Positions 22,975-51,638 of a stretch of 64,000 nucleotides of DNA are shown here, one piece after another. Under the pieces are notes generated by a model. The model was not told the DNA's origin. It saw only the letters and a program-made list of their open reading frames with translations, and searched no databases. How positions within the stretch are numbered: the stretch's first letter is position 1; every line of letters begins with the position of its first letter. A program made the position numbers and the translations under genes. The stretch lies in the NCBI GenBank assembly GCA_028291515.1, contig JAQGHU010000025.1, positions 62,001 through 126,000 on the forward strand, written 5' to 3'. The DNA comes from Schlesneria sp. Lineage in GTDB: Bacteria; Planctomycetota; Planctomycetia; Planctomycetales; Planctomycetaceae.

Positions 22975-23409
22975 CTAAATTGGGGATGGCCGCTTCCGTG
23001 GCTTCCAGAGAATCAGGTAGGCGGAGAGCAAGATCAGTGGAATGGTGAGGGGCCAATATGTAACCTCGCAATACCAGACTTGATCAGGGGTACCAATTAC
23101 TGTTCGTATAACTTCCGCGTACAAGGGCCAGTTTTCCAATCCCCTGAAGTCGTCGGGACCTGGAATTTCACCCCAATTGATCATCACAGAATGCTGGTTC
23201 GCGTGCGCTGCTTCCACCTCCGCCTCATTCCACTGCCACAAGCGAAGGCCGTCGGCAGAAGTGGCAACGATGTATCTCATGCCGAAGAGCGAGTAACCGA
23301 AAACATCATCGACTTGCCTCGCACGAACCCACATCCCTGTAACCACGCACGCCATCAGCAGCGTGACGCCCCCCGCCTTTCGTCGCCAGCCTTGGAAGAA
23401 TGTGTGCAT
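22975..23409 (-). CDS. GWRRK-family small membrane protein, paralog A
   Basis: 144 residues from ATG 23409. Residues 3-12 (TFFQGWRRKA) carry the family signature FF-x-GW-RRK-x-G; residues 13-31 are a hydrophobic helix (GGVTLLMACVVTGMWVRA). A ~90-residue polar middle follows, and the C-terminus has a second helix TYWPLTIPLILLSAYLILWKPRK. Paralogs: 36036-36452, 36445-36909, 36902-37336 and 51363-51638. The leader TATCATGCCCCCC directly before ATG is nearly identical to that of the 36036 gene. Both arms of an inverted repeat bracket this gene and the ORF upstream. Probably an inner-membrane protein with a periplasmic loop; function unknown. Confidence 0.8.
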   Translation of the reverse strand: MHTFFQGWRRKAGGVTLLMACVVTGMWVRARQVDDVFGYSLFGMRYIVATSADGLRLWQWNEAEVEAAHANQHSVMINWGEIPGPDDFRGLENWPLYAEVIRTVIGTPDQVWYCEVTYWPLTIPLILLSAYLILWKPRKRPSPI

Positions 23410-30011: not shown

Positions 30012-31076
30012 ATGCTCGATAACATTGTGAAGCTGCTGGGTGATAAGGCTGACGAACTCCTCAAGTTCAACACTCCCAAGATCTCGCGCGAGCGACTGCA
30101 TCTGCCATGTGGTGACTGGGTCGATCGGATCTTCGCGTCGTCTGATCGCAACAATCGAGTATTGGCGAATCTGCAGCGGTTGTACGGACATGGTCGACTC
30201 GCGGGAACCGGGTATGTGTCCATTCTGCCCGTGGACCAGGGGATCGAGCATTCGGCGGGAGCCAGCTTTGCCAAGAACCCGGATTACTTCGATGCCGAAA
30301 ACATCGTCAAGCTGGCGATCGAAGGGGGCTGCAATGCTGTGGCTTCGACGTTCGGCGTACTCGGGATTGTGGCTCGCAAGTACGCTCACAAGATCCCGTT
30401 TATTGTGAAGATCAACCACAACGAACTGCTCACCTATCCGAACAAATTCGATCAGGTGATGTTCGGGACTGTGAAACAAGCGCACGAGATGGGTGCGGCC
30501 GCGGTCGGGGCCACCATCTACTTTGGTTCCGAGCAAAGCACGCGACAGATTGTCGAAGTCTCCCAAGCCTTCGCCGAGGCGCATGAACGCGGCCTGGCGA
30601 CAATCCTCTGGTGCTACCTGCGCAATGATGCGTTCAAGAAGGACAAGGACTATCACGTGTCGGCGGATCTGACCGGGCAGGCCAATCACCTGGGAGTCAC
30701 CATTCAGGCCGACATCATCAAGCAGAAGCTTCCCGAGAATAACGGCGGCTTCAAGGCCCTCAATTCAGGTGCCTCCAGTTACGGCAAACTCGACGAACGA
30801 ATCTACACTGAACTGACCAGCGACCACCCCATCGATCTCTGCCGCTATCAAGTCGCCAACTGTTTCATGGGCCGCGCAGGCCTGATCAATTCCGGCGGTG
30901 CCTCGGGCAAGAACGACCTCGCCGACGCCACTCACACCGCAGTCATCAACAAGCGAGCGGGCGGCATGGGACTGATCTCCGGCCGCAAAGCGTTCCAACG
31001 CCCCCTGGCCGACGGCATCGCCCTGCTCAACGCGATCCAGAATGTCTACCTGTGCGAAGACATCAGCGTCGCATAA
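30012..31076 (+). CDS. fbaB: Class I fructose-bisphosphate aldolase (DhnA/FbaB type)
   Basis: 354 residues from ATG 30012, with AGGA upstream; the frame is open from 29835 but the N-terminal motif fits this start. Landmarks: [17 protein letters not shown] (phosphate-binding region), [27 protein letters not shown] and the C-terminal [14 protein letters not shown]. These place it in the archaeal-type class I aldolase family, which uses a Schiff-base lysine and no metal. Reaction: fructose-1,6-bisphosphate to GAP plus DHAP, cytoplasmic, in glycolysis/gluconeogenesis. Standalone unit; an imperfect hairpin (31113-31163) follows the stop. Confidence 0.93.
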
Positions 31077-31112
31077 GCTCTTAGAGTGGCACTAAAGAGA
31101 TGCGCCTACGAA

Positions 31113-31163
31113 GGGATGAGCGTTCAGTGTACCAACCTTCGAACGTCCAACTGAACGCATCCC
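31113..31163. terminator. Imperfect hairpin between convergent genes
   Basis: GGGATGAGCGTTCAGT and ACTGAACGCATCCC pair with one bulged base. It sits between the convergent aldolase and 31180 genes and could terminate both. Confidence 0.45.
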
Positions 31164-31179
31164 ACTCGGGGCGTAACCA

Positions 31180-32154
31180 CTATTTGTCGTTCCATTTGAT
31201 CATGGGGCCCACCTCCACCTTCGGCAGCGAGATCGTAATTCGTGTGTCGTAGGCGACTCTCTTGTCCATATCGACGCGCACTCTGTTCCCGACGGCTCGC
31301 AACATCACTTCGCCACCGTGACCCCGCACCAGAACTCGTTTTCTGGCAGCATCCACATCCAGCCAGCCGCTTCCGATTCTTTCGGCAATCAGGTCTCGAT
31401 GTGTTGCGGACGTGACGACAACCGTGTCCTTCTGAATTATGATGGTGCCGCGACCGGCCGGCACGCGGAGTTGAAGCTGCCCGTCGTTCGCGGAGACCAC
31501 CAGGTAGTTCGCAAAATCTTGGAGGATTGCTGGCTCCGGAACCTGAGGCACCGGGTTCTTGGACAGGTCCAGCCGAGCAATTTCATAACGCAACGAGATC
31601 GAACTAGGACTAAAGAGTTCGCCCACTTCCAGATAGCTAAGCTGGCCAACTCCCCCTTCGCGCGTGACAAACGGCAGCATCGCACGATGCTTTTCTTTAG
31701 GAATGACCTCCTGGAATGAAACCCACTTATCGTTCTCGACCGACTTCAAATCTTCGATGATCGACTGGGGCGTCCTCTTTGGCAGATTACCGGCTTTCTC
31801 CCACCAGGTTCCAACCTTCATTTCAAATATGACGATCGTGATCGATTGGCCATCGGTCTGAAACGCTGCGTCCAGCCCCTCCTGACGAATCCACGCTTTC
31901 AACTTGTCAGTGTAATTGAGTTCCGCGAGTTCGTACGGTTGCGCGGCTTCCACATTCAGCACACCCGGCGGCGGAGCCATAAAGCGGCCGGTATCAAAAT
32001 CGAAAAACAGCGGCCGAAGCTCAACCTCGGTTAACACCCGCCCCAGCACAATGCCATCGAACGACAGACTCGCTGTCCCATCATCCTCGGCAGCGTTCGC
32101 CACATCACAAGCAAGAACGGCAAGCAACAATGGCAGCGCAACACTCTTGATCAT
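31180..32154 (-). CDS. Secreted hypothetical protein
   Basis: 324 residues from ATG 32154 (frame open to 32199). MIKSVALPLLLAVLACDVANA is a signal peptide. The first half resembles a STAND/secretin-N-like pattern (LSFDGIVLGRVLTEVELRPL, LQWL-like KLKAWIRQEGLDAAFQTDGQ), and the second half has paired strands GRGTIIIQKDTVVVTSATHR and ARKRVLVRGHGGEVMLRAVG. I do not recognise a family with confidence. Likely periplasmic. Confidence 0.7.
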   Translation of the reverse strand: MIKSVALPLLLAVLACDVANAAEDDGTASLSFDGIVLGRVLTEVELRPLFFDFDTGRFMAPPPGVLNVEAAQPYELAELNYTDKLKAWIRQEGLDAAFQTDGQSITIVIFEMKVGTWWEKAGNLPKRTPQSIIEDLKSVENDKWVSFQEVIPKEKHRAMLPFVTREGGVGQLSYLEVGELFSPSSISLRYEIARLDLSKNPVPQVPEPAILQDFANYLVVSANDGQLQLRVPAGRGTIIIQKDTVVVTSATHRDLIAERIGSGWLDVDAARKRVLVRGHGGEVMLRAVGNRVRVDMDKRVAYDTRITISLPKVEVGPMIKWNDK

Positions 32155-32199
32155 TGTGAGCTCCAGTTGTCGATTCGATGCAACATCATCTACGTGCAT

Positions 32200-32656
32200 G
32201 GGGCGACGATCCGATTATTGCCTTCTGAAGTTCGCGATGCCAATCTCTCATTCGCTTTCAGTCCCATGAAGGGCGAATCAAACACCATGTTGCCCAAACT
32301 CAACGTGGCCTCTGAGCCACATGGTCATTGTGAATATATGGCTTATATGTATCCGCTGAATACTTCCTACCCTGCCACGAAGACGGTTTGTCAATAACTT
32401 AGCCAGGCATCGGTCTGATCGGGCACTTTTGTCAGTCGACAAATTCACTCTCAAACGCAAGCTTCACTCTTTCCAATACGCGCCACAACGCGAATGGCAC
32501 AAAAGACTTTCGCCAAGACGATGACCCCAATCCTGCGCCCTAACGCAGCGGCTGTGGGCTCTGTGGTGAATATTGTTGCACCGTCGCAAATTGTGACCTA
32601 GGTTCATTGTGGGGCCATCTATGGAATAGTGATCGCATTGTCTGGAGTTCCGCGAC
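32200..32656. other. Intergenic region upstream of hybrid kinase
   Basis: No supported gene; short frames here have no ribosome site. No repeat family was recognised. It probably holds the promoters of the divergent flanking genes. Confidence 0.4.
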
Positions 32657-35602
32657 ATGACTGTGGACAATCGCCCCCACCAGGAACCGGACTCAATATC
32701 CACTGTCCCTTGGAAACTCGACTGGCGCATCGCCGCCAGCGCCATTCTCACGGCCCTGTGCCTCAGTTATCTGAGTTCCTGGGTCGTGATGCTTGCCCTC
32801 CGTGATCTCACGAATCGAGCGTTCCTGCCGCTTGGCGTCGGTGCCGTGGGCCTGGCCGCCAGTACCGCTCTGGCAGTCTATGCCCTCCTGCGACCAACTG
32901 CCCATCTGTCAGCCTTGCTCTCGCGCAATCGCGAATTGGAAGGCGCAATCGCCCAGAAGTCGCAGATGCTGAATGACAGCGAAGCCCGAGTCGCCCTCGC
33001 GGTCCGGGGATCCAGTGATGGGTTGTGGGATTGGAATATTCTGACGACGGAAATCCGCTACATTCCACGAACGCGCGGAATGCTCGACCTCAATGATCCC
33101 GGTTTCAAGAATACGCTGGAAGAATTCAATAGCTCGTTGCATCCCGATGATTTCCTGCGGACCTGGCAATCCGTGAAACGTCATCTCGAACATCGCGAAC
33201 CCTACGACATCGAGCACCGTCTGCGCACGAAAGCGGGCGACTATCGCTGGTTTCGATCACAGGGCCAGGCCATCTGGAATGATCAAGGGGAACCAGTCCG
33301 TATGGCAGGATCGGTCACCGATATCCATCGCCAGAAGAGCGCGGAATTCGCTCTGACTCACGAACGCTTCTTGCTCGACACACTGCTCAAGAATCTGCCC
33401 GATTTGATTTATTTCAAGGACACGCAGGGCCGGTTCTTGCGGGTCAGTTCCGCTCTCGCGAAACATCTCGGTGGGCGATCGCCCGATGACGTGTGCGGCA
33501 GAACAGACGCCGACTATTTTCCGACCGACTATGCGGATCAGGCACGTACCGACGAGGAAGAACTCATTCGCGGCGTTCGCACGGTCGTCACCAAAGAAGA
33601 ACGACCGGTCTGGAACAATGGCACCAGTTCGTGGGTCTTGACGACGAAGATCCCGCTGAAAGATGCTAACGCACAAATCATCGGAACGTTCGGCATTTCC
33701 CGAGATATCAGTGTGCTGAAACAGGCCGAGCATCGGTTTCGCCAGGTGGTCGACGCCGCGCCGAACCCCCTGCTCCTCGTTTCTTCATCCGGCACGATTC
33801 AACTGGCGAACACAGCGACGGACAAACTCTTCGGTGTCACGCGAGCCGAAATCATTGGCCGCTCAATCCAACGACTCATCCCCGACTGGTCGCAGGCCGA
33901 TTCCGAAGCACCGCCTGTCAAACGGCCACGTCGAGAAGCACTCGGACTGCATCGCGATGGCACATTGGTCCCGCTGGAAATCAGACTCAGTCCCCTGGTC
34001 TTCGGCGATGACCAAGTTGAGCTGGCAAGTATCCTCGACCTGACCGACCAGAAGCAGGCGGAACAGGCCCTGGTTGCAGCCAAAGAAGTGGCGGAAGCGG
34101 CCAACCGTTCCAAAAGCGATTTCCTGGCCAACATGAGCCACGAGATTCGCACGCCGATGAACAGCATCCTGGGGTTCACCGAACTGCTCCGCCGCAAAGT
34201 CGGCTCGTTCGAGCAGCAAGAGTTCTACCTCGAAACCATTCACGCCAGCGGTCGCCACCTGTTGACGATCATCGACGACATCCTCGACCTCTCGAAGATC
34301 GAAGCCGGGGAAATGGAATTCGAGTCCGTCCGCTGTTCACCCCACCACATCATCGGTGAAGTGCTGTCGGTCCTGCGCGTCAAAGCTCAAGAAAAACTGC
34401 TAAGTCTCGAGTGTCACTGGACGAGCGGAATTCCCGAGACCATCCAGTCCGATCCCGCGCGCCTCCGGCAGTTACTGATCAACCTGGTTGGCAATGCGAT
34501 CAAGTTCACCGAGCATGGCAGCGTCCAACTGAAGATCACCGTCGCACCAAGTTCGCCTGAACCGCGATTGATGATTGAAGTTCAAGACACGGGCATCGGC
34601 ATGACCGCCGCGCAGATCGCCCGGCTGTTCGTTCCCTTCCGACAGGCCGACAGCTCCGTCACCCGGCGATTCGGAGGAACCGGCTTGGGACTGGCAATCT
34701 CCAAACATATCGCCCGCCAACTCGGCGGCAACATTACCGTCACGAGCGAACCCGGAGTCGGTAGCGTGTTCTCCGCCGCCATTGCGACGGGCCCGCTCGA
34801 CAATGTCCGGATCTTCGATGGTCCGCCGAGTGAAGCGTTGCTACCCGTGCGAAAGCGACCACATGCCCGAGTCCGTCGCTTGGACAAGGTGCGCATTCTC
34901 CTGGTCGAAGATGGTGAAAGTAATCGCGACCTCGTCAGCCTCGTCCTGCGAGAAGCGGGAGCGACCGTGGAGACCGCCGAAAACGGTCAAGAGGGCATTC
35001 TTGCCGCGATCAGCAGTGATTTCGACTTGATCCTGATGGACATGCAAATGCCCATCCTCGACGGATACAAAGCCGCCACCCACCTGCGATCGCTGAAGTT
35101 CGATGTTCCGATCGTCGCCCTGACCGCTCACGCCATGCGAGGCGACGAGCAACGTTGTCGCGAAGCGGGCTGTTCGGGCTACCTGACCAAGCCCATCGAT
35201 ATTGATGAACTGCTCAGGGTCATCAGCTACGTCCTGGCCCCGGCCGTCACCTCCAGAATGATCGCCAAGATCCCACCCGCGTGGTCCGAGGAAGAGGAAG
35301 GCCGCATCGTGTCGTCGCTGCCGGTCGAACACGACGGCTTCCGCACGCTGGTCGAAAGCTTCCTCACCAAACTACCCGACAAACTCGACGCCATCGCCGC
35401 CGCGATCGCGGTAGGCGACGCCGACGAGGTCGAACAACTCGCCCACTGGCTCCGCGGCACCGGCGGCACCATGGGCTTCGACTGCCTGACCGGCCCCGCC
35501 CAACGCCTCGAAGAATCCGCCCGAGACCTCGAACAAGACGCCCTCCACGACCAACTAAAATCCATCCGAAACCTGGCCGATCAGATGGCGGTTCCTGTCT
35601 AA
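32657..35602 (+). CDS. Hybrid sensor histidine kinase with receiver and HPt domains
   Basis: 981 residues. Two membrane helices lie near 27-75 (AASAILTALCLSYLSSWVVML, FLPLGVGAVGLAASTALAVY), then three PAS/PAC modules over about 110-470 (GLWDWNILTTEIRYIPRT; LIYFKDTQGRFLRVS; PNPLLLVSSSGTIQLAN). Next come HisKA with SHEIRTPMN (His495), HATPase with NLVGNAIKFTEHG, DTGIGM and GGTGLGLAIS, a receiver domain with phospho-acceptor Asp795 in LILMDMQMP, and a C-terminal HPt with AHWLRGTGG (His930). All phosphorelay residues are present, so it can autophosphorylate and relay to HPt. Output protein unknown; the nearby receiver at 37380 lacks its Asp. Confidence 0.95.
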   Translation: MTVDNRPHQEPDSISTVPWKLDWRIAASAILTALCLSYLSSWVVMLALRDLTNRAFLPLGVGAVGLAASTALAVYALLRPTAHLSALLSRNRELEGAIAQKSQMLNDSEARVALAVRGSSDGLWDWNILTTEIRYIPRTRGMLDLNDPGFKNTLEEFNSSLHPDDFLRTWQSVKRHLEHREPYDIEHRLRTKAGDYRWFRSQGQAIWNDQGEPVRMAGSVTDIHRQKSAEFALTHERFLLDTLLKNLPDLIYFKDTQGRFLRVSSALAKHLGGRSPDDVCGRTDADYFPTDYADQARTDEEELIRGVRTVVTKEERPVWNNGTSSWVLTTKIPLKDANAQIIGTFGISRDISVLKQAEHRFRQVVDAAPNPLLLVSSSGTIQLANTATDKLFGVTRAEIIGRSIQRLIPDWSQADSEAPPVKRPRREALGLHRDGTLVPLEIRLSPLVFGDDQVELASILDLTDQKQAEQALVAAKEVAEAANRSKSDFLANMSHEIRTPMNSILGFTELLRRKVGSFEQQEFYLETIHASGRHLLTIIDDILDLSKIEAGEMEFESVRCSPHHIIGEVLSVLRVKAQEKLLSLECHWTSGIPETIQSDPARLRQLLINLVGNAIKFTEHGSVQLKITVAPSSPEPRLMIEVQDTGIGMTAAQIARLFVPFRQADSSVTRRFGGTGLGLAISKHIARQLGGNITVTSEPGVGSVFSAAIATGPLDNVRIFDGPPSEALLPVRKRPHARVRRLDKVRILLVEDGESNRDLVSLVLREAGATVETAENGQEGILAAISSDFDLILMDMQMPILDGYKAATHLRSLKFDVPIVALTAHAMRGDEQRCREAGCSGYLTKPIDIDELLRVISYVLAPAVTSRMIAKIPPAWSEEEEGRIVSSLPVEHDGFRTLVESFLTKLPDKLDAIAAAIAVGDADEVEQLAHWLRGTGGTMGFDCLTGPAQRLEESARDLEQDALHDQLKSIRNLADQMAVPV

Positions 35603-35680
35603 AAAAGCGTGCGCGATGCTAGTTGTTTTGGGTACCACGCAACGGCGCGAACGGTTTTCCAACGCTGGATAAACGCGGGT

Positions 35681-35723
35681 GTGCCACTGGTTGGCCGCTG
35701 CGGACAACCAGTGCCGATAGCAC
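35681..35723. repeat. REP hairpin, GTGCCACTG...CAGTGCCGATAGCAC
   Basis: ACTGGTTG pairs with CAACCAGT. Closest relative is 17087-17131; both keep TTGGCCGCT and CGGACAAC. Non-coding. Confidence 0.7.
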
Positions 35724-35891
35724 GTAAACGCAACAGCAATGTCTTCGCCCGGCGCATCATGTGTCGAACGCGAACTCTCATCACGGCTGACAAGTCAACC
35801 AGTCTTCGTTTAACCGCGTGGGCATCGCCCCGCGCGTCATGCAAAGTTCGACGACGTTCTCCGATCAGGAGTGTGGCACGCCATGAGTCTT

Positions 35892-35934
35892 CGAAGGGCG
35901 TGGGATTTCGGCTCCACTCCTGACCACGCCCTTC
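35892..35934. repeat. Perfect 11-bp hairpin
   Basis: CGAAGGGCGTG at one end and CACGCCCTTCG at the other, with a 21-nt loop. It lies upstream of the membrane-paralog triplet; no gene recognised in this stretch. Confidence 0.55.
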
Positions 35935-35988
35935 GCAAAGCCTCAGAGCCTGCCACCCAAATTGAAAAAGCGATAGACCTGCGCGACG

Positions 35989-36022
35989 AACCGGACAGGA
36001 ACACCTGTCCGGTTGTTTTTTT
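35989..36022 (+). terminator. Strong intrinsic terminator immediately before paralog B
   Basis: AACCGGACAGG, loop AACA, CCTGTCCGGTT and then GTTTTTTT: a perfect 11-bp stem with T-run, 14 bp upstream of the ATG at 36036. It would stop upstream readthrough, so the downstream genes need their own promoter or antitermination. Confidence 0.85.
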
Positions 36023-36035
36023 GTATCATGCCCCC

Positions 36036-36452
36036 ATGCACACCTTCTTCCACGGCTGGCGACGAAAAGCAGGATGCGTAGCGCTCGTGATGGCCTTGTG
36101 CCTACTGGCGCTTTGGTTCCGTAGCCACGTCGTAGCCGATACCCTCGCGGTTTGCATTGGGGAGGCCATCGAAGCCGAAACTTCCCAAGGAATGTTTGAA
36201 GTATTGCACAATAACATTGGCTATGTGGATGATTTAGGAGTCCGACACACCTCGGTCCCCGGCGGCTTGTCGTGGAGGAGCGAATCAACAGATGTCCTGC
36301 CAACTGGTGGCCCTAGCATGTTCGGGGGAACCAAGAGCTATTTTCGATGCTCGCTGCTTTGGTTCGTCCTGCCCCTCACCATACTCTCCGCCTACCTCCT
36401 GTTAGTCCCCTCAAGAAAACGACCATCTACCGAGAGCCAGCCCCATGCGTGA
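36036..36452 (+). CDS. GWRRK-family small membrane protein, paralog B
   Basis: 138 residues. MHTFFHGWRRKAGC signature, then helix VALVMALCLLALWF, a ~75-residue polar loop (GEAIEAETSQGMFEVLHNNIG...), and C-terminal helix LLWFVLPLTILSAYLLLVPS with RKRPSTESQPHA. The N-terminal 12 residues differ from paralog A only at one position. The leader TATCATGCCCCC-ATG follows a strong terminator. Its last codons CAT GCG TGA overlap the next start (ATGCGTGA), so translation of the triplet is coupled. Predicted inner-membrane protein with two helices; no recognised family. Confidence 0.8.
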   Translation: MHTFFHGWRRKAGCVALVMALCLLALWFRSHVVADTLAVCIGEAIEAETSQGMFEVLHNNIGYVDDLGVRHTSVPGGLSWRSESTDVLPTGGPSMFGGTKSYFRCSLLWFVLPLTILSAYLLLVPSRKRPSTESQPHA

Positions 36453-36909
36453 ATTCTTCCACGGCTGGCGACGAAAAGCGGGATGCGTTGCGCTCATAAT
36501 GGCGTGCGTGCTGATGGTTGGATGGTTCAGAAGCCGATTGGTGCAAGATGAAATACGGATATCTGTTTGCTATGCCAATTTGTTTTTCAACTCCTGCAAC
36601 AGCACCCTCACTTGGTGGCAATTGTCCGGCCTCGATTCTGCGTCTCCGCAATGCTTCGCTTTGCAGTGGCTGACGCATCCCGAGATACGAGGACGTATGT
36701 TCTCGTTTTCCGAGCTAGTCACATTAGAGGAAGGCAGCTCGCTAACCCCAACCCACGTCTATGTTCCGCGAGAAGAACAAGGAGCGGCGCTAGTGAATTG
36801 GACCGTGCCTTACTGGTCGATTGTCCTGCCACTCACCCTACTCTCCGCCTACCTCCTGTTGGTCCCATCACGGAAGCGGCCACCAACCGAAAGCCAGCCC
36901 CATGCGTGA
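36445..36909 (+). CDS. GWRRK-family small membrane protein, paralog C
   Basis: 154 residues. MREFFHGWRRKAGC, helix VALIMACVLMVGWF, a loop of about 95 residues, then PYWSIVLPLTLLSAYLLLVP with tail SRKRPPTESQPHA, which is nearly identical to the tail of paralog B. Loops of B and C do not align by eye, so ends are conserved and middles are not. It overlaps its neighbours by exactly 8 nt at both ends (ATGCGTGA). The identical junctions indicate tandem duplication of a unit. Confidence 0.8.
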   Translation: MREFFHGWRRKAGCVALIMACVLMVGWFRSRLVQDEIRISVCYANLFFNSCNSTLTWWQLSGLDSASPQCFALQWLTHPEIRGRMFSFSELVTLEEGSSLTPTHVYVPREEQGAALVNWTVPYWSIVLPLTLLSAYLLLVPSRKRPPTESQPHA

Positions 36910-37336
36910 GTTCTTTCGAGGTTGGAGGCGGAAGGTGGGTTGCTTGCTGCTGATCCTGGCAACGGCGGCAGCAACGGCTTGGTGTCGCAGCTTGATGGTT
37001 CGAGACCAACTCATTCATGTCAGCGGCAGTACGATGCGTCAGATCACATCGGAATCTGGGACCTTGAGCTGGGAAACATCCATTCACTTCGAAGATTTCT
37101 TCGACTCTGCGATGCCCGAATCCGGTTGGTTTTCCCGACCGGCGACGGAAACTGGCCACGATGGATATAGGGGCCTGTGCCAATGGCGGTTCGCCTGGGG
37201 AGGGTTTGATCTCGCCACAGGAACGATTGGACGCTCTCAAATTTACGGAGGGGCTGTTCCCTACTGGTCGATGGCACTTCCGCTGACCCTCGCGTCCGCC
37301 TACTTGATCCTCTGGAAGCCACGGAAGGCGAAGTGA
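36902..37336 (+). CDS. GWRRK-family small membrane protein, paralog D
   Basis: 144 residues. MREFFRGWRRKVGC, helix LLLILATAAATAWC, polar loop with several Trp and Gly (FAWGGFDLATGTIGRSQIYG), then PYWSMALPLTLASAYLILWKPRKAK. The C-terminus (SAYLILWKPRK) is closer to paralog A than to B or C, so the copies have mixed affinities. Last gene of the triplet; convergent with the receiver gene 43 bp away. Function unknown. Confidence 0.8.
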   Translation: MREFFRGWRRKVGCLLLILATAAATAWCRSLMVRDQLIHVSGSTMRQITSESGTLSWETSIHFEDFFDSAMPESGWFSRPATETGHDGYRGLCQWRFAWGGFDLATGTIGRSQIYGGAVPYWSMALPLTLASAYLILWKPRKAK

Positions 37337-37379
37337 GCCTTGTCCAAATTACTAGGTCGGCGGTCCCGTATGTTCTGCA

Positions 37380-37853
37380 TCAGGGATCAAGAATCTGCCT
37401 CACCCGATCGCTCAACGAAAAGATCGAGAACGGTTTGCGGAGCAGATCTGTCACGGGCCCCAATTGATCTCGCGGGATGATCGGGCCGGCGTGTTGGCAG
37501 TTCAATTGTTCGTAGTCGGACATCATCAACACTTTGATCGCGGGATACGCTCGTCGCAGCCGGGCGGCCAGATCCCAGCCGCTTAAATGAGGCATCACGA
37601 CGTTCGCGATCACCAGATCGATGGGCCGGTCCAGACATTGGCACGCTTGCAGCGCCTCGATCCCATCGGCCGCCTCCACCGTCTGGCAGCCGCATTCTCT
37701 CAGAACCAGGCAGATCATCCGCCTCAGGTCTCGATCGTCCTCCGCCACCAGCACCGTGGCTTGTGGCATCTTGGTATGACCCAGCGCCAGTCGCAGAGGT
37801 AGCGGAAGCACCTGGCACGGTCGAACAGCGCCGCTGAAATGAGGGCCGAGCAT
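37380..37853 (-). CDS. Receiver-domain protein lacking the phospho-acceptor Asp
   Basis: 157 residues from ATG 37853, which has GGAGG six bases upstream; this gives a 28-residue extension before the receiver. The domain starts PQATVLVAEDDRDLRRM with the acidic pair Asp-Asp. The usual phosphorylation strand is DLVIANVVMPHLSG, where Asn (codon AAC) occupies the phospho-Asp site. The switch Ser (LMMSDY) and Lys (LRKPF) are kept. No output domain follows. I infer a pseudo-receiver acting by protein contact, or a stand-alone regulator; it cannot accept phosphate in the normal way. It lies downstream of the hybrid kinase and triplet, opposite strand. Confidence 0.85.
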   Translation of the reverse strand: MLGPHFSGAVRPCQVLPLPLRLALGHTKMPQATVLVAEDDRDLRRMICLVLRECGCQTVEAADGIEALQACQCLDRPIDLVIANVVMPHLSGWDLAARLRRAYPAIKVLMMSDYEQLNCQHAGPIIPRDQLGPVTDLLRKPFSIFSLSDRVRQILDP

Positions 37854-38247
37854 TCGCCACCTCCATAACTTGGAGAGACTAAGTTGACCGGTTCTGACAT
37901 ACCGGTTTTGTGGCCCACAGACATTGATTCGACCAGTTCCAATTTATGCGATCAGCTCAATGAAGCAATCTCAGACAAGATTTTGAGAATCGTGCAATTG
38001 AGCTACAAAGTAGCCACGATCGGGCAAAAACTGCTGATCCTGCTCCCTCTGTTTCGCGACTCGGCTTGGGACTTCATCGCACGGATCGGCCATCTTCTGG
38101 TCGGTGATCTCACAGTGCGATGCGGACTGTGCCATGAGGTCGTACATTGACCCACGCATTTGCAAGAAAGAGGGCCACTTCGGCGATTGGCAAGGGAGTT
38201 GCATTTGTTTCTCAAGGGGCGGCTCACATCACTAAGGAAGGTGCTCC

Positions 38248-38661: not shown

Positions 38662-38853
38662 GTTGGCACGTCGGGCGTGTGAAGTCGAGCCCTTCCCATG
38701 CATCAAACTCCGACAACCCCCACCGAGTTCATCTCGGTGGAATTTGGGCCTTTGCACTATGCTGGCCGGCGATCCTCCCCCGAAATCGATCTGTCACAAA
38801 ACCTCCACTTTTTTGAGGAAAACGGCCAAAAATAGCCCCGTTTTGTCCCCCAT

Positions 38854-38887
38854 TGTCAAAAACTGTCCTGGGCTGTCAAAAACTGTC
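38854..38887. repeat. Two 14-bp direct repeats, 20-bp period
   Basis: TGTCAAAAACTGTC occurs at 38854-38867 and 38874-38887. The 20-bp spacing (near two helical turns) is suited to a tandem protein-binding site. Confidence 0.6.
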
Positions 38888-39258
38888 AGTGACGATTTCG
38901 CACAAAATTGGCAAAGTTTCTCAAACACCGTCTTGATCGTGGCTCGTCAATTGGCACAATCGTCGACGGTACGAATGACTCGTGGTGTACCGTAACCAAC
39001 GGACACGCCTCTGGGCCGCTCTCTTAGCGGAAGATCAGAGGTCCAATTTCGTGATCTGACCAAGACAAACAGCACGCCGCCCACCTCCTTCCTGAGCGGG
39101 GCGACTTCACCCCCTGACTCCTCGGGCATCCGCCTGACTGTTGTGGCGGGTTCGTTGAACAACTTGAGGAACAAACGCCTGTGGACGCGCGACTCGCAAG
39201 AGCCGCACGCATCCAAAACAGTGGGAAGTGACAACACTTTTGAAGGGAGATTGCCATC

Positions 39259-40206: not shown

Positions 40207-40358
40207 CCAACCGACATCAACATTTGTCACCAACAACGCTGCACCAAGGGGTATGTCATGCGAAAAAAATGGCACCCCCCCGAAAACCCTGCCATGGACT
40301 GACAAATTCTGCCAAATCGTAAGGAAACTCGCAGCGGTACCACGGACTTGGAGCACAG

Positions 40359-40686
40359 GGTATCCACACATCTTTCCCCAAAGCAAACTGAATGATCGTC
40401 GGCTGGTTCAGTGTCCTCAGGCCCAAGGGGCCGGAACTTTGCCCAGCCAGGGCCCTTCGGCCCTGGAATTAAGCGCATCACTAGACTTCCAAAGGCCTGA
40501 AAGGCCGGACATTTCAGGAGGGTGCTAATTCAAACTGCAGGACTAATGGGCCGGCCCTTCAGGCCTCCCGAGATGTTTTAAGAGGTCTTGTTCCGGGGCC
40601 GAAGGGCCCCGGCTGGGCAAAGTTCCGGCCCGTTGGGCCTCATGACAGAGTGCAAAGCTTCAATGCATCAAAGATGTGTATATACC
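40359..40686. repeat. MITE-like element, copy 2 (~328 bp)
   Basis: Same element as 19186-19522 in the same orientation: shared TCAGGCCCAAGG, GGAACTTTGCCCAGCC, TAATGGGCCGGCCCTTCAGG and GGGCCTCATGACA blocks, and outer ends GGTATCCACACATCTT / AAGATGTGTATATACC that pair. Central bases differ by scattered substitutions. Confidence 0.8.
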
Positions 40687-51362: not shown

Positions 51363-51638
51363 TCATTTCGAATTTATGTTGCCGGACGTGACGGGGCTTT
51401 GGCTTTTCGGTCGACGACTGAGCAGCATGTAGGCAGAAATGAATGTGAAAAGAAAAACAAGGACCGACTGTTCTATGAGAACTATTGACACCGCCTCTTG
51501 GGGCTGAATGCTCTCCGCTATCGCAATTGTCCGCAGCATGTCCGAGACACCCAGCCCGGCCAAGAATAACGTCACGCATCCGACCTTGCGTTTCCACCCG
51601 CGAAAGAATGCACACATAAAACTGAAGAACTCGCCCAT
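51363..51638 (-). CDS. GWRRK-family small membrane protein, paralog E (short, divergent)
   Basis: 91 residues. Starts MGEFFSFMCAFFRGWKRKVGC, where the FF-x-x...FF-x-GWKRK segment looks like a duplicated or fused start (MGEFF, then CAFFRGWKRK). Helix VTLFLAGLGVSDML, a short polar link, a second helix VLVFLFTFISAYMLLSRRPK. The long middle loop of A-D is missing. Retains SAY-x-L near the end. Repeats 51247-51325 and 51752-51873 flank the gene. Function unknown; inner-membrane location inferred. Confidence 0.7.
   Translation of the reverse strand: MGEFFSFMCAFFRGWKRKVGCVTLFLAGLGVSDMLRTIAIAESIQPQEAVSIVLIEQSVLVFLFTFISAYMLLSRRPKSQSPVTSGNINSK

What the first reader, a model, noticed from the sequence alone, without database searches (positions are those of the whole stretch)
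36036..37336. Tandem triplet of an apparently undescribed small membrane-protein family
Three consecutive genes (B, C, D) share FF-x-GWRRK-x-G starts, a first helix, and a closing helix with SAY-x-L, yet their 75-95-residue middles do not align by eye. Two more members (A at 22975, E at 51363) are in the same window. Conserved ends with variable middles is the pattern of a scaffold that displays different domains, or of rapidly diversifying surface/sensor proteins. Five copies in 64 kb suggests a genome-wide expansion. I do not recognise the family.
Basis: partly seen in the sequence, partly recalled or inferred. Interest (0 to 1): 0.85.

Follow-up and report, generated by a model that had tools for sequence, protein, structure and literature searches.

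The report
Gene cassettes with shared coding ends
Planctomycete bacteria of the genus Schlesneria carry scores of small membrane-protein genes whose first and last stretches are nearly the same DNA while the part between seems to be exchanged between loci and sometimes replaced by an unrelated gene, which looks like an undescribed way of shuffling envelope genes.

Summary
The triplet is real and belongs to an undescribed family: 92 copies of its 5' DNA signature in the 8.6-Mb genome (0 for the reversed pattern), present in 11 of 14 other Schlesneria genomes (2 to 69 matches each); outside the genus only single relatives were found. Predicted proteins have two membrane helices around an outside domain. 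For most members (64 of 85) this middle is one homologous, very divergent domain, modelled as a seven-stranded beta fold. What is unusual is the DNA. In this genome and its close relatives the first ~60 nt are more alike at synonymous sites than codon usage predicts (weak in some other species). Genes occur as copies that end where the gene ends, and ends stay in place while the middle differs. At five loci here and one in the nearest relative, the two end blocks flank an unrelated gene; one of these, a PQQ gene, has other neighbours in 7 relatives. Best explanation: cassette exchange by recombination at conserved coding ends. Surviving middles look mostly constrained. Function is a guess. Main caveat: draft assemblies.

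The parts
36036..36452 (+). gene B, 138 aa, first gene of the triplet; middle not recognised by the family middle profile
36445..36909 (+). gene C, 154 aa; middle scores 6.8 bits with the middle profile (99th percentile of shuffles 5.8); AF2 model pLDDT 82.1, pTM 0.68, residues 81-110 uncertain
36902..37336 (+). gene D, 144 aa; canonical member: helix 8-32, seven strands between 33 and 120, helix 122-137; pLDDT 89.9, pTM 0.78
36045..36098 (+). N block of B (codons 4-21), the 5' coding block that is alike among copies at synonymous sites
36366..36422 (+). C block of B (VLPLTILSAYLLLVPSRKR), the conserved 3' coding block
36445..36452 (+). 8-nt overlap ATGCGTGA of B stop and C start (same at 36902-36909 for C and D); 16 of 23 adjacent pairs within 100 nt overlap by exactly 8 nt
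35991..36012 (+). GC-rich hairpin CCGGACAGG-AACA-CCTGTCCGG followed by a T-rich run, just upstream of B (terminator-like, read by eye)
36024..36029 (+). TATCAT, -10-like box starting exactly 12 nt before the B start codon; at this exact place in 18 of 110 members; within 20 nt upstream in 19 of 110 members against 1 of 519 non-family ORFs
22975..23409 (-). gene A, 144 aa, single gene with TTTGGTATCATG upstream
51363..51638 (-). gene E, 91 aa: start block and closing helix nearly adjacent, a near-empty cassette
31072..37988 (.). stretch holding a hybrid histidine kinase gene and B-C-D that does not align at the syntenic place in the nearest relative (G012 C153, about 930 nt between the same flanks)

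Best explanation
The genes are recombination cassettes. Each consists of an N block (start codon plus about 60 nt coding for the RRK tail and first membrane helix), an exchangeable middle, and a C block (about 40-60 nt coding for the second helix and its basic tail). RecA-type homologous recombination or gene conversion between the similar blocks of different loci copies middles from locus to locus, adds and removes tandem copies, and keeps the blocks alike within a genome. Occasionally a whole unrelated envelope gene becomes enclosed by the two blocks and is then copied or exchanged in the same way. The usual product is a two-helix membrane protein that holds a seven-stranded beta domain on the outer side of the cytoplasmic membrane; some lone or first genes have a -10-like box placed for a leaderless transcript, and tandem genes are joined by 8-nt start/stop overlaps. 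Shown from sequence: copy number, like blocks, gene-bounded copies, different middles between kept ends at syntenic loci, foreign cargo between blocks. Inferred: that these patterns come from homologous recombination (not a dedicated recombinase), the topology (from charge), the leaderless start. Guess (about 0.25): the displayed domains are a varied repertoire that binds phage, toxin or neighbour ligands.
For: Within this genome, codons for the same residue are identical in 0.60 of comparisons in codons 4-21 (0.38 expected from codon usage), but 0.36 (0.33 expected) in codons 27-36; against G001, G005, G006 and G008 the N block falls to 0.42-0.46. Of 17 pairs with similar middle DNA, 11 show no similarity within 400 nt on either side; of the 6 pairs at 88% or more, 4 (L036/L038, L092/L144, two L031/L144 pairs) (three of them printed). 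Same locus, flanks 91-92%, N and C blocks kept, middle not alignable: L083 vs G012 L146. Same locus, flanks about 90%, block ends kept, ordinary member in one genome, unrelated 241-aa ORF in the other: L032 vs G012 L158. Copy-number change with the junction inside the N block: L049 vs L159, the G012 copy being broken. Foreign cargo between N and C blocks at L035, L037, L053, L295, L303; the same lipoprotein cargo at two loci with unrelated flanks (85-87% nt); the PQQ gene has no block beside it and a shared downstream neighbour in 7 of 7 relatives examined, which this genome lacks there. Of 30 full-length G012 genes, 23 have no middle counterpart above 34% identity in the loci fetched here; in 7 syntenic loci with family genes, 20% of family nt but 73% of other nt align. 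Across species, one pair has middles 92% identical and N blocks 0.59 identical.
Against: The assemblies are drafts (G000 119 contigs, G012 about 200; G012 and G011 are MAGs by title); wrong joins at repeated short blocks could fake the link between flank and block, less easily the link between block and cargo. Foreign cargo was not seen in the 15 loci of G008, a 20-contig assembly. The within-genome excess is weak in G001, G005, G006 and G008 (0.43-0.49), and for G001 and G006 some between-species values (0.467, 0.498) exceed the within-genome value; G007 and G011 stay close to this genome (0.54, 0.57); the expectation uses codon usage of this window only. In close species pairs the N block is mostly as similar as the middle; in the 8 more distant pairs with middles at 45-60% identity it is below both own-genome means in 5, between in 1, above in 2. 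6 of 17 middle pairs do keep a similar flank. Left junctions of foreign cargo fall at different places, which does not separate homologous from illegitimate recombination. No expression or recombination data; no significant fold match.
Confidence: 0.63

Rival explanations
1. An ordinary lineage-specific gene family: repeated duplication and loss, relaxed middles that diverge fast, and protein-level constraint on the two membrane helices, perhaps with codon selection near the start. No DNA exchange.
For: Most middles are one homologous domain; of 109 N-C block pairs 7 are broken family genes, and 19 further N-block hits have no C block within 1.5 kb; plain orthologs with similar flanks exist (L084/L146, L031:6580/L144); synonymous excess is weak in four of the other genomes.
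Against: Synonymous excess in this genome confined mainly to codons 4-21, gene-bounded copies without similar flanks, different middles between kept ends, unrelated genes between blocks, mostly constrained middles.
Confidence: 0.17
2. A dedicated mobile or integron-like system: a recombinase acts on sites inside the N and C blocks, so that the coding ends double as recombination sites and any gene between them is a mobile cassette.
For: Arbitrary cargo between the same two blocks; gene-sized copies at sites with unrelated flanks; swap at one locus.
Against: Junctions with foreign cargo lie at different positions in the N block; no terminal inverted repeat better than shuffles in 8 of 8 species; no recombinase was sought genome-wide; no relatives found in viral, plasmid or phage collections.
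Confidence: 0.12
3. Assembly artefact: short repeats joined wrongly in draft assemblies.
For: C-block 32-mers are identical in many copies; key genomes are drafts, several of them MAGs by title.
Against: Block-cargo junctions are unique sequence; the same kinds of pattern appear in two separate assemblies; a double wrong join would be needed to restore both flanks of L083/L146. The family itself is multi-copy in G008 (20 contigs) and in the single-contig G003.
Confidence: 0.08

Closest known systems
Rhs genes: C-terminal tip displacement (PMC2935791, abstract and section list seen)
   Same: Conserved part and variable part evolve apart; diversity from recombination and acquisition rather than fast mutation.
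   Different: Rhs has a conserved core and a variable C-terminal tip; here two short conserved ends enclose a small middle, about a hundred copies per genome, and cargo can be an unrelated gene.
DOMO, domain movement in Type I restriction S genes (PMC3077401, abstract and section list seen)
   Same: A variable domain moves, probably by recombination at repeats on either side (x-domain-y), also between loci.
   Different: DOMO concerns DNA-recognition domains of restriction S genes; here whole small genes are built on the repeat pair and foreign genes are enclosed.
vls antigenic variation system of Borrelia (search listing with start of abstract only)
   Same: Variable cassette region exchanged by recombination.
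   Different: One expression site plus silent cassettes of about 90% identity; here most copies are complete open genes and many middles are not alignable.
Integron gene cassettes (recalled)
   Same: Arrays of small genes with common ends that hold arbitrary cargo.
   Different: No attC-like site, fixed crossover point or integrase shown; the ends are themselves coding sequence.
PE/PPE genes of mycobacteria (search listing with start of abstract only)
   Same: Large family with a conserved N-terminal part and recombination among copies.
   Different: Different protein family; a conserved 3' block was not mentioned in what I saw.

Membership tests
Any curated protein family (Pfam, NCBIfam, PHROGs, PADLOC) | match above curated cut-off | tested here: not met
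   Five window proteins against Pfam and NCBIfam: only sub-threshold hits, best E 0.079 and 0.063; 66 members against Pfam (1 at E 0.0084, DUF3955), PHROGs (1 at E 0.0014) and PADLOC (0)
Solved folds (PDB) | sequence or structure match | tested here: not met
   No sequence match; Foldseek best E 0.004, none at 0.001 or better, TM-scores of the 50 rows shown at most 0.32
Rhs-type displacement system | conserved core with variable C-terminal tip | tested here: not met
   Both ends conserved, middle variable; no Pfam Rhs match in 66 members
DOMO-type domain movement | domain moves between genes by recombination at flanking repeats | tested here: inconclusive
   Gene-bounded copies and replaced middles seen; the recombination step itself is inferred
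Integron cassettes | attC-like sites and an integrase with a fixed crossover point | tested here: inconclusive
   Junction positions differ between cargos; no search for an integrase or attC sites was made
Transposon with terminal inverted repeats | inverted repeats at the ends | tested here: not met
   Best match of N block with reverse complement of C block reached by 69 to 200 of 200 shuffles in 8 of 8 species
Wider planctomycete WVRS...VPxW two-helix proteins (recalled) | common in the class | tested here: not met
   0 of 98 class genomes for one strict DNA pattern; in 150 genomes of the family, of which at least 9 are of the genus, 8 non-genus genomes have one match each at E 0.02 or better; 245 genomes of the phylum: 3 matches, two of them training sequences. 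Only part of the candidates was scored.

The most novel reading that the evidence does not exclude
Schlesneria has a genome-wide gene-capture platform in which the coding ends of a small membrane-protein family serve as the exchange sites: an envelope gene that becomes enclosed by the N and C blocks can gain a start, an export helix or a promoter, and can be swapped among about a hundred landing sites, an integron-like role without the usual integron parts.
Probability: 0.24. Interest if true: 0.92.

Novelty: new variant of a known kind. Interest (0 to 1): 0.74.

Why it matters
Domain and cassette exchange at flanking repeats is known for some antigen, toxin and restriction genes. Here it appears on the scale of about 100 chromosomal genes per genome in environmental bacteria, with coding ends that also enclose unrelated genes. 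It would give a natural, countable system for how bacteria exchange envelope genes, how large genus-restricted families arise, and where part of the unannotated protein content of planctomycetes comes from. Cultured strains exist, so it can be tested directly.

Tried and rejected
Terminal inverted repeats between N and C blocks: an apparent CTTCC..GGCT match was no better than shuffles. A wide planctomycete superfamily, which I recalled, was not confirmed. Known folds: CYTH, PH and RseB-like hits are weak, TM-scores low. Positive selection on middles: gene-wide dN/dS below 1 in all 10 pairs computed; no site test was made. Phage, plasmid or viral carriage: no relative found (one search had 10 pattern stretches, none confirmed).

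Counting notes: N-terminal copies in this genome number 92 (exact degenerate DNA pattern), 104 and 110 (two peptide patterns in fetched loci), 128 (profile hits at E 1e-3, a few counted in two frames or only partial). I use 92 as the firm count. The genome search scored only part of its candidates in several calls, so copy numbers in relatives are lower bounds. The tables use only loci that I fetched; one search counts only matches of 250 nt or more at 80% or more.

Full report
WHAT IS THERE. Genes B, C and D lie at 36036-36452, 36445-36909 and 36902-37336 on the + strand and overlap by the 8 nt ATGCGTGA. A is 22975-23409 (-) and E 51363-51638 (-). They share FFxGW(R/K)RKxG, a first hydrophobic helix, and a last helix with SAYxxL and a basic tail. 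E has almost nothing between the ends.

HOW MANY. The degenerate DNA signature of the start occurs 92 times in the 8.59-Mb genome; the same pattern read backwards occurs 0 times. The 3' signature occurs 63 times with up to 3 mismatches and 0 times in the control. Members sit singly or in tandem arrays; 23 adjacent pairs lie within 100 nt and 16 of these overlap by exactly 8 nt. A profile of 66 members finds the family in 11 of 14 other genomes of the genus (2 to 69 matches each) and in 0 of 44 relatives outside it at E 1e-6. In 150 genomes of the family, at least 9 of them of the genus, 8 genomes outside the genus have one match each at E 0.02 or better; two are strong (2.1e-18, 6.3e-18) and have the same layout including the middle.

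THE PROTEIN. No curated family or solved structure matches at a cut-off. Mean net charge over 64 members is +3.2 in residues 1-12, -2.6 in the middle and +3.2 after the last helix, which by the positive-inside rule puts both ends inside and the middle outside. AlphaFold2 on D in an alignment of 43 sequences gives pLDDT 89.9, pTM 0.78: helix 8-32, seven strands between 33 and 120, helix 122-137. C gives pLDDT 82.1, pTM 0.68 with first helix, six strands and last helix, residues 81-110 being uncertain; most of the alignment is shared between the two jobs. Foldseek finds nothing significant in PDB or BFVD. A profile of middles trained on other species only scores 68 of 85 full-length members of this genome above the 95th and 64 above the 99th percentile of shuffled middles. 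The middles are therefore mostly one very divergent domain; B and A are among the 17 below the 95th percentile.

THE DNA OF THE ENDS. Where two members of this genome have the same residue in codons 4-21, they use the same codon in 0.599 of comparisons; codon usage of 16 long window ORFs predicts 0.378. In codons 27-36 the values are 0.359 and 0.33, in the C block 0.415 and 0.335. Within G012, G011 and G007 the N block gives 0.543, 0.603 and 0.586; within G001, G005, G006 and G008 only 0.433, 0.485, 0.455 and 0.489. Between this genome and G012, G011, G007 it is 0.569, 0.568, 0.538; against G001, G005, G006, G008 it is 0.418, 0.426, 0.449, 0.457. For G001 and G006 some between-species values (0.467 with G005; 0.498 with G007) exceed the within-genome value. 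So the start block is clearly alike in this genome and three others, with a limit before codon 27, and the likeness falls off in part of the genus; in four genomes the signal is weak. Codon selection near the start may contribute.

EXCHANGE. Of its 30 full-length genes with both ends, 5 have a counterpart here with at least 71% identity in the middle, 2 have 47-49%, 23 have at most 34%. In the 7 syntenic loci that contain family genes, 1804 of 9237 family nt but 21026 of 28636 other nt align. Case by case: L083/L146 keeps both flanks, 58 nt of the N block and 54 nt of the C block, with middles that do not align and differ in length. L159 has an N block that aligns to both of two neighbouring copies in L049, that is a copy-number change with the junction inside the N block; the L159 copy has a stop. 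Of 17 gene pairs with similar middle DNA, 11 have no similarity within 400 nt on either side and 6 keep at least one similar flank; among the 6 pairs at 88% or more the split is 4 to 2. Three of the four were printed: similarity begins near the start codon and ends near the stop. L084/L146 is a plain ortholog. Among 127 cross-species pairs with similar middles, one has middles 92% identical but N blocks at 0.59, below the mean to its own genome's copies; close species pairs mostly keep like N blocks; of the 8 pairs with middles at 45-60% identity from other species combinations, the N block is below both own-genome means in 5, between them in 1, above in 2.

FOREIGN CARGO. In this genome's fetched loci, 109 of 128 N-block hits have a C block within 1.5 kb downstream; 98 of these are one open frame, 7 are broken family genes, and 4 enclose an unrelated ORF. 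L037: N block in frame with a 110-residue unrelated stretch, stop, then SADLILWKPRK. L035: N block in frame with a lipoprotein-like ORF, stop, then LFSAYLIFRKP. L053: N block, a lipoprotein-like gene with its own start (Pfam tRNA_anti-like, E 4.5e-10), C block. L076, re-fetched as L303: N block, a 413-aa PQQ propeller gene (PQQ_2, E 1.2e-24), C block. A fifth locus, L295 on contig C63, holds a damaged copy of the L053 cargo (85-87% nt) between a damaged N block with the TTTGGTATCAT box and a C block (37 of 38 nt), in otherwise dissimilar surroundings. The PQQ gene has orthologs at 67-75% nt in 10 of 14 genus genomes. In the 7 loci examined, neither block profile finds a block (both do in L303), the downstream neighbour is shared by all 7 (83-97% aa) and an upstream neighbour by 4 (93-97%; 33-36% in the other 3); none of these neighbours is found beside the gene here. 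So the gene has most likely moved here. In G012, L158 has at the place of an ordinary member in L032 (flanks about 90%) an unrelated 241-aa ORF with a signal-like start between N and C blocks (no Pfam match). In the other loci scanned (231 distinct N blocks, which include L295 and L303), 32 were not one open frame; I recognised foreign cargo between both blocks only in L158, L295 and L303. By eye, these cargos look like exported or membrane proteins; I did not test that. L101 has an N block on a lipoprotein-like ORF, but no C block.

EXPRESSION SIGNALS. TATCAT starts exactly 12 nt before the start codon in 18 of 110 members, and lies within 20 nt in 19; it lies within 20 nt of 1 of 519 non-family ORFs of 100 aa or more. 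In 9 of the 19 it reads TTTGGTATCAT, an extended -10 look, and in many it follows a GC-rich hairpin (by eye). Placed so near the start, it would give a transcript beginning about at the ATG. This is inference; most members lack the box.

SELECTION. dN/dS of middles between this genome and G012, seven pairs: 0.025/0.218, 0.063/0.238, 0.083/0.31, 0.161/0.59, 0.011/0.143, 0.109/0.15, 0.386/0.717; against G011 0.19/1.328; two within-genome pairs 0.035/0.089 and 0.272/0.576. The middles are mostly kept as proteins. This counts against point mutation under gene-wide positive selection as the main source of variety; single sites were not tested.

READING. The simplest account of all this is exchange by recombination at short coding blocks. 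It resembles Rhs tip displacement (PMC2935791) and DOMO in restriction S genes (PMC3077401), of both of which I saw the abstract and section list, but with two-sided coding ends, about a hundred copies and foreign cargo. Fusion of distant gene pieces by deletion (PMC12803068, abstract and section list) is another route to single chimeras. I found no description of this family in the searches made (open-access papers only).

LIMITS. The assemblies are drafts, many of them MAGs; the link between flanks and blocks needs long reads. Copy counts in relatives are lower bounds. The foreign-cargo list comes from fetched loci only. The function of the beta domain is unknown; a repertoire against phages, toxins or neighbours is a guess.

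Noticed in passing
window 38783-39117: About 330 nt present in many dispersed copies at 76-79% identity here and in G012, with further repeated pieces near 40259-40330 and 40336-40500; a dispersed repeat that I did not identify.
   Followed up: no
L053:1950-2400: A second repeat (query 148-600) recurs at many places, some of them a few hundred nt from family genes.
   Followed up: no
L054:608-2048 (+): One long ORF that seems to join two family-like units in frame.
   Followed up: no
window 32657-35602: Hybrid histidine kinase with PAS, HisKA, HATPase, receiver and Hpt domains directly upstream of B; it lies with B-C-D in the stretch that does not align in G012.
   Followed up: partly
L255:3001-3459 (G012) and L277 (G061, other genus): By eye the middle of one Schlesneria member resembles the single-copy relative of another genus, so some middle lineages may be older than the genus.
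   Followed up: partly
   Followed up: no
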